A DNA stretch of 64,000 bases from Solibacillus palustris. GTDB taxonomy: Bacteria; Bacillota; Bacilli; Bacillales_A; Planococcaceae. The stretch lies in NCBI RefSeq assembly GCF_022549215.1, contig NZ_JAKZFC010000010.1:1-64000 (forward strand), given 5' to 3'. Made by a program: the position numbers and the translations under genes. How positions within the stretch are numbered: the first letter of the stretch is position 1; each line of letters opens with the position of its first letter. The notes under the pieces are model-generated. The model saw only the letters and a list, made by a program, of their open reading frames with translations, was not told the DNA's origin and did no database searches. Shown here piece by piece: positions 5,990 to 59,519 of this stretch.

Positions 5990-6037
5990 AAAGGCTTGTT
6001 TGCGCATGGCAATGATGCGTAAACAAGCCTTTATTTA
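5990..6037 (+). terminator. Intrinsic terminator
   Basis: A long near-perfect stem joins AAGGCTTGTTTGCGCAT (5991-6007) to ATGCGTAAACAAGCCTT (6014-6030), followed by a T-rich stretch. It ends the glycosyltransferase/DUF1232 transcript. Confidence 0.85.
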
Positions 6038-6069: not shown

Positions 6070-6130
6070 TGAGGCTCACACGATGTGAGTCATTGAGGGC
6101 ATACCACATGGATGTGGTGTTTTGCCCACT
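6070..6130 (+). repeat. Structured intergenic repeat, module C (copy 1)
   Basis: Hairpin A CTCACA-CGA-TGTGAG (6075-6089) is followed by a closing stem GGGCA/TGCCC (6097-6101 with 6123-6127) enclosing hairpin B (6103-6118, ACCACATGGATGTGGT). It has the same skeleton as copies near 16.8, 24.0, 30.6 and 48.6 kb, but with compensatory changes in both hairpins. It lies between convergent genes. Confidence 0.75.
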
Positions 6131-6166
6131 CGGGGCTGGAAGGGCGCTTTACCGCTTTTCTAATAG
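6131..6166 (+). repeat. 36-bp repeat E overlapping a gene end (copy 1)
   Basis: CGGGGCTGGAAGGGCGCTTT, then (A)CCGCTTTTCTAATAG. It matches 59484-59519 at 35 of 36 positions. The TAG stop codon of the minus-strand kinase gene (6160-6162) lies inside the repeat. Confidence 0.85.
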
Positions 6167-15531: not shown

Positions 15532-16731
15532 ATGTCGACAACAACCGTGAAACAATCGAATCCAATCTATCCAATTATGGTCGCAATTGGCGTTTGTCAC
15601 TTAATTAATGATACAATGCAAGCCGTTATTCCTGCGATGTTTCCGTTACTTGAGCGTGATTTAGGATTAACGTTTACACAGCTTGGGATGATTTCGTTTG
15701 TGTTAAATATGTTTGCAAGTTTACTACAGCCGGCAGTTGGGTTTATGACAGATAAACGCCCATTTCCGTATGCATTACCACTTGGGATGGTGAGTTCGTT
15801 TATTGGTTTGTCTTTACTCGTTTTATCTACGCAATATTGGATGATTTTAGTGTCGGTGTTATTTTTAGGGCTTGGCTCGGCGGTGTTTCATCCAGAAGGC
15901 TCACGTGTATCATTTATGGCAGCAGGGAATAAGCGTGGTTTAGCACAGTCTATTTATCAAGTGGGGGGCAATTCTGGACAAGCGCTCGCACCATTACTAA
16001 GTGCGTTTGTTATTTTACCATTTGGTATGAAAGGCGCTGCGATGGTATTAGTATTAACGTCGATGGGGATTTTTTTATTAACGAAAATTGCTGCATGGTA
16101 TAAGCGCCAACTAGAGGCAGAAAAATTGTCGAAAGTCAAAAGAGTGCTTGTATCATCACTCCCGCCATTAACAAAAAAACAAGTGGGCTTTGCGCTTGTT
16201 GTACTATTATTTATCATTTTTGCGCGTTCATTTTATGTTACGAATATGACGAGTTTTTATGTGTTTTATTTAATTGATCAGTATGGGGTATCCGTTGAGC
16301 GCGGTCAGTTATTTGTGTTTATTTTTATGGCATTTGGTGTAGTAGGGACGTTTTTTGGCGGGCCTTTGTCGGATAAATATGGCCGTAAAAATATTATTTT
16401 ATTATCGGTAATTGTACCGATTCCATTTTGTTTAGCATTGCCATTTGTACCGCTGTATGTTGCCCTAACATTGCTTATTATTATTGGGATGCTTATTATG
16501 ATTAGCTTTACAGTGACAGTTGTTTATGCGCAGGAGCTGGTCCCATCTAAAATTGGAACGATGGCTGGTTTAACGGTTGGGGTGGCGTTTGGTATGGGGG
16601 CGATTGGCTCAGTTGTCATTGGAATGGTCATAGATATGATGGGTATTCGCTTTACGATGATTGCCGTGTCGTTATTAACATTACTATTGTTTGTGGCGTT
16701 TTTATTACCAAAGGATAACGCAACAACTTAA
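15532..16731 (+). CDS. MFS transporter, fosmidomycin-resistance (Fsr) family
   Basis: 399 residues from the ATG at 15532; an in-frame ATG at 15499 would add 11 residues, and neither has a strong RBS. Twelve membrane segments with the MFS motif LSDKYGRKNI between segments 8 and 9. The N-terminal half has GVCHLINDTMQAVIPAMFP and the mid-protein GSAVFHPEGSR, both characteristic of Fsr-type exporters. It probably exports a drug-like compound across the inner membrane; the substrate is not determinable. Confidence 0.87.
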   Translation: MSTTTVKQSNPIYPIMVAIGVCHLINDTMQAVIPAMFPLLERDLGLTFTQLGMISFVLNMFASLLQPAVGFMTDKRPFPYALPLGMVSSFIGLSLLVLSTQYWMILVSVLFLGLGSAVFHPEGSRVSFMAAGNKRGLAQSIYQVGGNSGQALAPLLSAFVILPFGMKGAAMVLVLTSMGIFLLTKIAAWYKRQLEAEKLSKVKRVLVSSLPPLTKKQVGFALVVLLFIIFARSFYVTNMTSFYVFYLIDQYGVSVERGQLFVFIFMAFGVVGTFFGGPLSDKYGRKNIILLSVIVPIPFCLALPFVPLYVALTLLIIIGMLIMISFTVTVVYAQELVPSKIGTMAGLTVGVAFGMGAIGSVVIGMVIDMMGIRFTMIAVSLLTLLLFVAFLLPKDNATT

Positions 16732-16789
16732 CTTGATTCAGAGGAGATTCAATGAGTTAGTTGTAGCCACGCCCTCAGAAATAGTGGAA

Positions 16790-16851
16790 CAAATGCTAAA
16801 AACGCCACATCGTGTGGCAACGCATTCGTGACCAACATCATGTTGGCCTCC
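16790..16851 (-). repeat. Structured intergenic repeat, module C (copy 2)
   Basis: Minus-strand copy of module C. Hairpin A (16832-16846) is CCAACA/TGTTGG, the closing stem uses AATGC (16792-16796) with GCATT (16822-16826), and hairpin B (16804-16818) is GCCACA/TGTGGC. It lies between the convergent MFS and Usp genes. Other bases of 16732-16930 show nothing I can name. Confidence 0.75.
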
Positions 16852-23883: not shown

Positions 23884-24058
23884 GGTGCTTCACTCATGTG
23901 TTAATTAGCCGCTGTAGGCTCTTTTCTCGTTGATCAGATGTGGAAAGAAAGCTAAAAACGTCACATCCTGTGACAACGCATTCATGACCAGCATCGTGCT
24001 GGCCTCCATCCTCGGCGCAAAGGAGGTGTCCCAGAATCACTTCTCGGACACCCCCTTT
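23884..24058 (-). repeat. Composite intergenic repeat (modules A-C-B, minus orientation)
   Basis: Read on the minus strand, the order is module A hairpin (24058-24019, AAAGG...GTGTCC...GGACAC...), module C (24010-23945; hairpin A CCAGCA/TGCTGG, hairpin B GTCACA/TGTGAC) and module B (23919-23884, GCCTACAGCGG then TTAAT). The same order occurs at 30.6 and 57.6 kb. The closing stem of module C is imperfect here. Confidence 0.75.
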
Positions 24059-30574: not shown

Positions 30575-30792
30575 AAAGGGAATGTCCGAGAAATATTTCT
30601 GGGACAATCCCTTTGAACCGAAGATGGAGGCCAACACGATGTTGGTCATGAATGCTTTGTCACAGGGCGTGACGCTTTTAGCATTCGTTCCTTATTCTTA
30701 CCACCACAGAAGCACCGCCTACAGCGGATTAATAATACATGAGACGGAAGCTGTCCAAAAAGTATTTACTTTTGGACAGCTCCTTTCGTTGT
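30575..30792 (+). repeat. Composite intergenic repeat (modules A-C-B-D)
   Basis: The fullest copy. Module A hairpin lies at 30575-30615 (AAAGGG..GTCC..GGAC..CCCTTT). Module C lies at 30625-30690: hairpin A 30631-30645 CCAACA/TGTTGG; closing stem GAATGC 30650-30655 with GCATTC 30681-30686; hairpin B 30659-30673. Module B is at 30711-30745 (GCACCGCCTACAGCGGATTA). Module D hairpin is at 30748-30783, ending CAGCTCCTTTCGTTG. Module D probably also serves as the 3' end of the convergent alaX transcript. Confidence 0.8.
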
Positions 30793-46218: not shown

Positions 46219-46248
46219 CTTTTTAGATAAAATACCTGAAAATTCTCA

Positions 46249-46335
46249 GGAGAGGTTCATAGCTGATACCCTCTATAAAAAACTATGGATACATGACAAA
46301 TACGCCATGTCCATAATTGGACATGGCTTTTTTTG
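46249..46335 (+). promoter_or_regulatory. preQ1-I riboswitch with terminator (upstream of queF)
   Basis: The aptamer is AGAGGTTC..AGCT..ACCCTCTATAAAAAACTA (46251-46285), an almost exact match to the class I preQ1 consensus. It is followed by a terminator (stem GCCATGTCC/GGACATGGC, 46303-46328, then seven T). Binding of preQ1 would favour premature termination. Confidence 0.95.
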
Positions 46336-48472: not shown

Positions 48473-48478
48473 TCTATT

Positions 48479-48560
48479 AATTACGCCTCTGTGTAATTGC
48501 GTCAAGATTTTTTTCGAGTTCACTCGAAAAACTCCCCTAAAAAATCTGTGACATCCACCA
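48479..48560 (-). repeat. Intergenic repeat module F (copy 1)
   Basis: Minus-strand reading: GGTGGATGTCACAGATTTT, an interior 9-bp hairpin (TTTTTCGAG/CTCGAAAAA, 48511-48532), then GACGCAATTAC...GTAATT. The ends match 55764-55858, but the interior differs. It abuts module C copy at 48560. Confidence 0.7.
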
Positions 48561-48625
48561 GGGCTTTGTCCGACACGATGTTGGTCACTCAGGTGCCGCA
48601 CAAAGCGGCGTCCTTAGCCTGAGTT
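48560..48625 (+). repeat. Structured intergenic repeat, module C (variant copy)
   Basis: Hairpin A CCGACA-CGA-TGTTGG (48570-48584). The closing stem CTCAGG (48588-48593)/CCTGAG (48618-48623) encloses hairpin B GCCGC/GCGGC (48595-48609). Same layout as other module C copies with largely different stem sequences. Confidence 0.7.
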
Positions 48626-55672: not shown

Positions 55673-55928
55673 TGCCAAGAAACTGCGTTAAATGTGAAGA
55701 CGTTTAATGTAGTTTTTTAACTTTTTTCAGCAGGGGTTCAAACCCCGACTGAATCAAATTAGTGCCCTCGGCGGATGTCACAGATTTTAAAAGAAAATTT
55801 CCCAGCGGGTTCAAAAAATGGACGCAATTACGCCGAGGTGTAATTGATTTTTTTATTTCGTAGTCATTTAATGTTTGTTATATTTTTCTATAGAGTGAAA
55901 GAGGGATGTGTTAAAGGAGGAATGGCTG
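55673..55928. other. Intergenic region rich in palindromes
   Basis: Contains a hairpin TTCAG/CTGAA enclosing GGGGTTCAAACCCC (55725-55753), then module F copy 2 and the RBS region of the next gene. The hairpin could act as a weak terminator for the upstream gene. Confidence 0.5.
55764..55858 (+). repeat. Intergenic repeat module F (copy 2)
   Basis: GGCGGATGTCACAGATTTT, then an interior hairpin (CCCAGCGGG region), then GACGCAATTACGCCGAGG and TGTAATT, followed by a T run. Both ends match the minus-strand copy at 48479-48560. Confidence 0.7.
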
Positions 55929-57583: not shown

Positions 57584-57747
57584 GAGGGGGGTGTCCGAGA
57601 AGTAATTCTGGGACACCTCCTTTGCGCCGAGGATGGTGGAAATTTTATTTCGACCACCGCAGAAGCACCGCCTGCAGCGGATAATTAATACACGAACGAA
57701 GCACTGCGCGAAAAGTAAATACTTTTCGCGCAGCTCCTTTTGTTGTC
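57584..57747 (+). repeat. Composite intergenic repeat (modules A-B-D, C truncated)
   Basis: Module A hairpin lies at 57584-57624 (GTGTCC..GGACAC). A remnant of module C follows (GCCGAGGATGG, then GGTGG/CCACC). Module B is at 57664-57690 (GCACCGCCTGCAGCGG). Module D hairpin (CTGCGCGAAAAG/CTTTTCGCGCAG) ends CAGCTCCTTTTGTTG. Same order as the copy at 30575, with module D stem bases changed on both sides. Confidence 0.78.
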
Positions 57748-59381: not shown

Positions 59382-59483
59382 AGCTCCATAGTCTAGGCTA
59401 AAGCGCCAGTCCCTCGGCCATTTCGATCCCTCCTGCAAAAGTGGTGGTGCGTCTACTTTTGCGTCGGGCTCTCCAATGTCTGT

Positions 59484-59519
59484 CGGGGCTGGAAGGGCGC
59501 TTTAGCGCTTTTCTAATAG
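59484..59519 (+). repeat. 36-bp repeat E overlapping a gene end (copy 2)
   Basis: Matches 6131-6166 at 35 of 36 positions. The TAA stop codon of the CAP-domain gene (59502-59504) lies inside it, in a different frame from that used at copy 1. Confidence 0.85.

What the first reader, a model, noticed from the sequence alone, without database searches (positions are those of the whole stretch)
30625..30690. Module C: a dispersed three-helix element with compensatory base changes
Copies at 6070-6130, 16790-16851 (minus), 23945-24010 (minus), 30625-30690 and 48560-48625 share one layout: a 6-bp hairpin with a 3-base loop, then a closing stem around a second hairpin. The stems differ but still pair. 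Hairpin A is CCAACA/TGTTGG, CCAGCA/TGCTGG or CTCACA/TGTGAG. Hairpin B is GCCACA/TGTGGC, GTCACA/TGTGAC or GCCGC/GCGGC. The closing stem is GAATGC/GCATTC, CTCAGG/CCTGAG or GGGCA/TGCCC. Both-sided changes argue for selection on a fold, in RNA or as a DNA cruciform, rather than passive repeat decay. All copies lie between genes, mostly convergent ones.
Basis: seen in the sequence. Interest (0 to 1): 0.78.

Follow-up and report, generated by a model that had tools for sequence, protein, structure and literature searches.

The report
Folded cassette in mobile bacterial repeats
The five spots belong to, or resemble, a catalogued but unexplained bacterial RNA family, Bacillaceae-1, which here behaves as a small folded cassette carried inside several kinds of mobile intergenic repeat rather than as an ordinary small-RNA gene.

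Summary
Four of five copies match Rfam RF01690 (Bacillaceae-1) above its cut-off; the fifth is a divergent relative inside another repeat of about 20 copies. This Solibacillus genome has 101 matches, 100 above cut-off. In 34 diverse copies 14 of 17 base pairs changed on both sides, so a fold is selected; the family itself is not new. Not found in print by my searches: the ~65-bp core is a cassette inside several unrelated mobile repeats. Repeats A and B occur with and without it, in this window too. Two genomes of one species differ by whole repeats, with no target duplication at three clean sites, and at three of 13 places by the core alone. Compensations outnumber breaks on deep branches (30:3), breaks outnumber compensations at the tips (76:39): selection acts on copies that spread. 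The published CsrA-sponge idea fits poorly. The mobilising enzyme is unknown: neither genome has a Y1 transposase or reverse transcriptase hit.

The parts
30631..30697 (-).
   Evidence: 67.9 bits
30575..30786 (-). family A repeat around that core, filling the space between convergent genes; its outer hairpins look like two-way terminators
   Evidence: repeat extent; sequence and relatives without it
23936..24002 (+). RF01690 core in a family A repeat
   Evidence: 64.8 bits
23885..24058 (+). family A repeat around that core; the same-species genome G170 has two copies here, six other species have a gap without it
16780..16846 (+). RF01690 core in a family D repeat, next to a family B left-end remnant at 16727-16742
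   Evidence: 68.9 bits
48570..48633 (-). RF01690 core, 64 bp, with family B sequence on one side (48476-48559)
   Evidence: 44.8 bits
6075..6138 (-). divergent core, below the Rfam cut-off
   Evidence: 18.5 bits
6059..6160 (-). family F repeat (about 20 copies in the genome) holding the divergent core
57587..57741 (-). family A repeat WITHOUT the core (ends approximate); a 16-base spacer stands where the core would be
55716..55848 (+). family B repeat WITHOUT the core, 133 bp

Best explanation
This is Bacillaceae-1 (RF01690). Its conserved ~65-bp unit is a structural cassette of small, non-coding, intergenic mobile repeats of the Bacillales. SHOWN: high copy number; insertion polymorphism with clean empty sites; host repeats with and without the core; compensatory evolution concentrated in multiplying lineages. 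After landing, a copy is under little constraint and decays. Effects on neighbouring genes, such as family A repeats acting as two-way terminators, are side effects of the host repeats.
For: 101 matches in this genome, in four flank families plus 12 single copies (38+31+15+5+12). Other genera carry the core in repeats with different ends. Gaps without the repeat in relatives and empty alleles in the same species. Of 74 G170 copies with usable flanks (75 held of 93 matches), 40 share a place with a G000 copy, 27 match no G000 copy place and 7 match on one flank. Core-only difference at 3 of 13 places. Family B repeats without a core hit: 17 of 120, of which 7 are 105-135 bp and so too short to hold one; family A 3 of 45; both samples were mostly fetched around cores. 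Compensating against breaking changes 30:3 (deep), 18:11 (middle), 39:76 (tips); deep plus middle against tips p = 4.6e-8. Slid-pair controls give 1-3 two-sided changes against 87.
Against: No enzyme was found: Y1_Tnp and RVT_1 have no match in G000 and G170. Coreless family B repeats exist too, so the core is not strictly needed for movement. Non-A cores mostly lie with the Rfam strand along co-directional genes (61 to 12; G000, all families, 37 to 14), so the strand favoured by wobble pairs is usually neither the mRNA strand nor the exposed lagging-strand template; this tension is unresolved. Over all branches the strand asymmetry is weak (69 against 48, p = 0.064; without pair 11-49, 59 against 45, p = 0.20), and an earlier tree-free count was 20 against 10, p = 0.10.
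Confidence: 0.55

Rival explanations
1. A true RNA regulator whose reverse strand carries paired GGA hairpins and sequesters CsrA (hypothesis of Gardner and Eldai 2014, PMC4333381, passages seen).
For: The strand favoured by wobble pairs on internal branches is the one they proposed. csrA-bearing genomes carry RF01690 more often: 191 of 234 against 11 of 27; within genus g21 28 of 36 against 3 of 10, p = 0.008. GGA stands in at least one loop in 167 of 259 distinct cores.
Against: GGA stands in both loops in only 47 of 259. In this genome, which has csrA, the reverse-strand loops read CGA rather than GGA in 47 of 85 cores at the second helix and 65 of 85 at the third, by the deciding base. G090 and G094 have no csrA hit yet at least 18 matches each, and the one G090 core I held has GGA in both loops. 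Copies differ between strains by insertion.
Confidence: 0.07
2. A host-level element in mRNA ends (terminator, stabiliser or processing site), kept because it benefits nearby genes.
For: Intergenic: of 150 copies in two genomes 148 lie between ORFs of 125 aa or more, one is at the edge of its stretch and one lies in a 131-aa ORF. Family A sits between convergent genes in 18 of 31 classified cases, against 9 of 39 gaps in the window (different ORF thresholds). Non-A copies run with co-directional genes 61 to 12.
Against: Resident copies lose pairing freely (39 compensations against 76 breaks at tips). Orthologous places often lack the repeat. The orientation preference differs between families although the core is the same (family A co-directional 6 same, 6 opposite). 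The terminator-like hairpins belong to the host repeats, not the core.
Confidence: 0.2
3. Part of an IS200/IS605-type (REP-like) non-autonomous transposon moved by a Y1 single-strand transposase.
For: Family B ends in hairpins and inserts next to TTTAA, TTTGA or TTTAC without target duplication at three clean sites; I saw no duplication among the 70 printed of 119 full-length copies found. Between non-co-directional genes, non-A copies follow the assumed replication direction 27 to 11, p = 0.014.
Against: No Y1 match in G000, G170 or G009, which have 101, 93 and 103 RF01690 matches. In four Y1 loci of relatives (of 20 Y1 matches) I saw only scattered two-mismatch hits to single repeat ends and no pair framing the gene. 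The replication trend comes from G170 (18 to 4); G002 alone shows none (9 to 7, p = 0.80), and beside lagging-strand genes copies follow the gene 6 to 3. At two of the three clean sites a target base beside the left end differs from the empty allele.
Confidence: 0.15
4. Both-sided changes come from DNA template switching that repairs imperfect palindromes, with no selection.
For: The units are palindromic, and such events are known in bacteria (recalled).
Against: It should act on resident copies too, yet tips show mainly breaks and deep branches mainly compensations. Unpaired positions are also conserved (G8 A9 T18 A19 A40 A41 T50 G51 A52 invariant in 34 copies).
Confidence: 0.08

Closest known systems
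Rfam RF01690, Bacillaceae-1 RNA (Weinberg et al. 2010, PMC2864571; table passage seen)
   Same: Same three helices and conserved letters; 4 of 5 window copies above the gathering score.
   Different: Rfam types it as an sRNA gene, on the opposite strand; here it is a cassette in mobile repeats, with a divergent form that Rfam's model misses.
Small interspersed repeats such as BOX, RUP and SPRITE of pneumococcus (PMC3049150, abstract and outline seen) and bcr1-bcr18 of B. cereus (PMC3446304, passages seen)
   Same: Short, intergenic, structured, many copies; the pneumococcal authors read theirs as parasitic rather than host-serving.
   Different: Here one fold with compensatory evolution is shared by several repeats with unrelated ends and can be absent from them. 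Whether BOX or bcr repeats do this was not tested.
Bhal-1 of Bacillus halodurans (Petrillo et al. 2008, PMC2267715; table passages seen)
   Same: A 74-bp stem-loop repeat family, listed with 36(32) copies and type I; possibly the same element.
   Different: Sequence not compared here, so identity is only a guess.
IS200/IS605-derived palindromic elements and REP sequences (features recalled)
   Same: Terminal hairpins, no target duplication, some orientation bias.
   Different: No Y1 transposase match in three high-copy genomes.

Membership tests
RF01690 Bacillaceae-1 | score above the curated gathering score | tested here: met
   4 of 5 window copies; 100 of 101 genome matches. Copy 5 fails with 18.5 bits
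RF01690 Bacillaceae-1 | three-helix fold supported by covariation | tested here: met
   14 of 17 pairs with two-sided change in 34 copies
RF01690 Bacillaceae-1 | RNA gene transcribed on the Rfam strand | tested here: inconclusive
   wobble asymmetry on internal branches favours the other strand (18 against 3); no expression data
CsrA-binding sRNA | GGA in both hairpin loops | tested here: not met
   47 of 259 distinct cores have it
CsrA-binding sRNA | found with csrA | tested here: inconclusive
   enriched in csrA genomes, but 11 of 27 csrA-less genomes have it
IS200/IS605 or REP-type element | insertion without target duplication | tested here: met
   three clean family B sites
IS200/IS605 or REP-type element | Y1 transposase available in the genome | tested here: not met
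   0 matches in G000, G170 and G009; present in 9 of 16 genomes of the genus
MITE with DDE transposase | direct target duplications | tested here: not met
   none at three clean family B sites, none seen by eye in listed family A and B flanks; families D, E and F not tested
reverse-transcribed repeat | reverse transcriptase in the genome | tested here: not met
   RVT_1: 0 matches in G000 and G170; present in 12 of 16 genomes of the genus

The most novel reading that the evidence does not exclude
The ~65-bp core is itself a mobile unit, among the smallest known, that enters the hairpin arms or tips of other mobile repeats (at least A, B and the second site C in B) as a folded single strand, using an enzyme that is neither a Y1 transposase nor a reverse transcriptase. 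A widespread Rfam 'sRNA' family would then be a mobile element nested in mobile elements.
Probability: 0.2. Interest if true: 0.75.

Novelty: new variant of a known kind. Interest (0 to 1): 0.5.

Why it matters
Bacillaceae-1 entered Rfam from a 2010 screen; a 2014 paper reports that its discoverers were unsure of the strand (PMC4333381), and a 2022 review places it in its section on the most abundant sRNAs (PMC9029176; passages seen in both). The data here say it should be treated as a module of transposable repeats, suggest the opposite strand, and weaken the one mechanism proposed for it in the passages I read. They also give pairs of filled and empty alleles that make its function directly testable.

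Tried and rejected
Coding: the copies hold short open frames, but the stems change between unrelated codons and core lengths differ by non-multiples of three (read by eye), so I do not think it encodes a peptide. IS200-type partner: four Y1 loci of relatives show no pair of repeat ends around the gene (hairpins of one of them). Reverse transcription: no RVT_1 match in the two genomes. Spread on plasmids or phages: no match for one family E core of 111 bp in either collection; other families were not tried. Target duplications: none seen by eye in families A and B. Orientation: one search had a coding slip (convergent pairs counted as co-directional) and was replaced. Strand: the tree-free count gave 20 against 10, p = 0.10; the tree over all branches 69 against 48, p = 0.064; only internal branches are clear (18 against 4, 18 against 3, differing in how ties are broken). 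The class-wide sample had 0 of 8 other-genus genomes with a match, so the family is not general in that class.

Full report
WHAT IS THERE. The five places carry the hairpins and stems described. The fifth, 6075-6138, scores 18.5 bits. It belongs to a ~100-bp repeat: itself, 18 copies at 85-95% identity, one at 74% and three fragments. That repeat holds a divergent form of the fold; a scan of five of its loci, this one included, listed no RF01690 match at E up to 5. The genome has 101 matches, 100 above cut-off, with 150 of 444 first-look candidates scored. The genus is taken to be Solibacillus because a contig of the same-genus genome G004 has exactly the length of a named Solibacillus faecavium record (683,913 bases). 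Of the genomes searched in its order (all labelled same family), 202 of 261 have a match, 199 above cut-off, in 17 of 19 genera; that search scored at most 18 candidates per genome, so its counts are floors.

IS IT MORE THAN CHANCE. On 34 copies chosen from diverse genomes, 14 of 17 pairs have two-sided changes, 97.1% of cells pair, and none of 500 shuffles reaches the observed covariation score; sliding the partner by 1-3 columns leaves 28-38% paired. The number of further pair types does not stand out (202 of 500 shuffles reach it). On a tree of 259 distinct ungapped cores (from 384 raw hits, which include repeated reads of the same place; gapped cores were dropped), there were 87 changes from one Watson-Crick pair to another, against 1-3 with slid partners.

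WHO IS SELECTED. I split those changes by branch. On branches with four or more descendants there were 30 compensations and 3 breaks; with two or three descendants 18 and 11; at the tips 39 and 76 (first two groups against tips, Fisher p = 4.6e-8). So the fold is kept in lineages that go on to multiply, and single resident copies decay. That is the pattern of a mobile element, not of about 100 host genes. It also argues against arm correction by template switching, which should act on resident copies too.

WHICH STRAND. Over all branches the asymmetry is weak (69 and 48, p = 0.064; without pair 11-49, 59 and 45, p = 0.20), and a tree-free count was 20 and 10, p = 0.10. Most loci were first found with the Rfam model, which if anything favours wobble pairs on Rfam's strand; the cores were then cut out with a sequence-only profile. 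Gardner and Eldai 2014 (PMC4333381, passages seen) report that the discoverers were unsure of the strand; this result points to the reverse strand, at moderate strength.

NESTED IN MOBILE REPEATS. In this genome the cores fall into flank families: A (38), B (31), C (15, a second core inside B), D (5) and 12 single copies (consensus). Other genera carry the core in repeats with quite different ends. Families A and B also exist without the core. In this window, A at about 57587-57741 and B at 55716-55848 are coreless. Over all loci held, 17 of 120 distinct family B places had no core hit, of which 7 are 105-135 bp, too short for one; the other ten (182-242 bp) may hold decayed cores; the loose core pattern can also count one core twice. 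Of 45 family A places 3 were coreless. These samples were mostly fetched around cores, so the true coreless share is probably higher. In the coreless forms the host hairpin looks complete, and the core takes the place of its tip or one arm (by eye), which suggests the core was gained.

MOVEMENT. At the three window places tested, relatives lack the repeat: at 23936 six species have a 300-419-base gap without it, G002 has a 1,498-base gap holding other sequence, and the same-species genome G170 has two nested copies; at 16780 two species have a 57- or 80-base gap with only a terminator hairpin, four have gaps of about 3.8 kb that I did not resolve, one was not resolved for lack of one flank, and G170 has a decayed family B copy; at 30631 G170 shares the repeat, four species have a 64-199-base gap without it and three were not resolved. 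Of 93 G170 matches I held 75; 74 had usable flanks, and of these 40 share a place with a G000 copy, 27 match no G000 copy place (empty there, or region absent) and 7 match on one flank. For one G170 insertion of 309 bp the G000 allele is empty; a second place is a replacement, 220 bases against 43, rather than a clean insertion. Of 13 further G170 copies whose G000 site could be predicted, 3 differ by the core alone, 3 look like whole-repeat differences (910218 and 308945 clean, 1435019 ragged), 1 is a longer partial difference (1183466), and 6 were not resolved. The three clean family B sites show no target duplication. Two of the three core-only cases fit gain of the second core in family B; the family A case could be a deletion, because the coreless allele keeps the first bases of the core region. 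Gene conversion between copies could also explain gain.

ENZYME. Y1_Tnp has no match in G000, G170 or G009 (9 of 16 genomes of the genus have one), and RVT_1 none in G000 or G170 (12 of 16 have one), although G000, G170 and G009 hold 101, 93 and 103 RF01690 matches. The mover is therefore unknown or has been lost. Other transposase families were not searched.

CONTEXT. Copies are intergenic: of 150 in G170 and G002 (of 200 matches there), 148 lie between ORFs of 125 aa or more, one is at an edge and one lies in a 131-aa ORF; the 11 'in ORF' cases in G000 are ORFs of at most 121 codons. Family A prefers convergent gaps (18 of 31 classified, against 9 of 39 in the window, p = 0.0035), and its outer hairpins followed by T runs look like two-way terminators; at 30631 it stands where relatives have an ordinary terminator hairpin. 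Non-A copies run with co-directional genes 61 to 12 and, between non-co-directional genes, with replication 27 to 11, p = 0.014 (122 places after merging neighbours and dropping opposite-strand pairs; origin assumed at base 1 and terminus at the midpoint). The replication trend is G170's (18 to 4); G002 shows none (9 to 7), and beside lagging-strand genes copies follow the gene 6 to 3, so replication and transcription are not separated. The strand favoured by wobble pairs is then usually neither the mRNA strand nor the exposed lagging-strand template; I cannot explain this.

CsrA. GGA stands in both loops in 47 of 259 distinct cores and in at least one in 167. csrA is missing from 27 of 261 genomes, of which 11 still have RF01690; two of these (G090, G094) have at least 18 matches (seven of the 27 were not printed and were deduced from handle numbers). 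Presence is correlated (191 of 234 against 11 of 27, p = 1.4e-5), also within one genus (28 of 36 against 3 of 10, p = 0.008), which may reflect shared ancestry or lifestyle. The sponge idea is weakened, not excluded.

KNOWN OR NEW. The family is known. Eight searches, for 'Bacillaceae-1', 'RF01690', 'TwoAYGGAY' and for repeat and mobile-element terms, listed no paper whose title or abstract describes it as a module of mobile repeats; of the 11 papers that hold the name I read passages of four. Most subscription papers are not held, and no supplementary file was read. Petrillo et al. 2008 list a 74-bp repeat, Bhal-1, that may be the same thing (table passages only).

Noticed in passing
window 46246-46292 (+): PreQ1 riboswitch, 41.8 bits.
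   Followed up: no
window 59477-59512 (-): Fragment of the family F repeat; no core seen beside it.
   Followed up: no
G002, e.g. 426480 (+) with 426584 (-), 1562543 (+) with 1562649 (-), 3463231 (+) with 3463336 (-): Pairs of cores about 105 bp apart in opposite orientation, besides same-strand pairs about 100-110 bp apart.
   Followed up: no
L034-L058 flanks, e.g. L035, L040, L052: In family E repeats an outer stem around the core seems to covary (GCGTGA/TCACGC, GCACGA/TCGTGC, GCCCGAG/CTCGGGC), so the structured unit may be larger than the Rfam model (by eye).
   Followed up: partly
L314, L331, L347 (records titled Pseudomonas sp. ISL-84): Near-consensus cores in records named Pseudomonas; possibly a mislabelled Bacillales genome.
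   Followed up: no
window 5990-6034: Long near-perfect hairpin next to copy 5, probably the terminator of the upstream gene.
   Followed up: no
261 genomes of the order: Presence of RF01690 and csrA is correlated even within one genus (28 of 36 against 3 of 10).
   Followed up: partly
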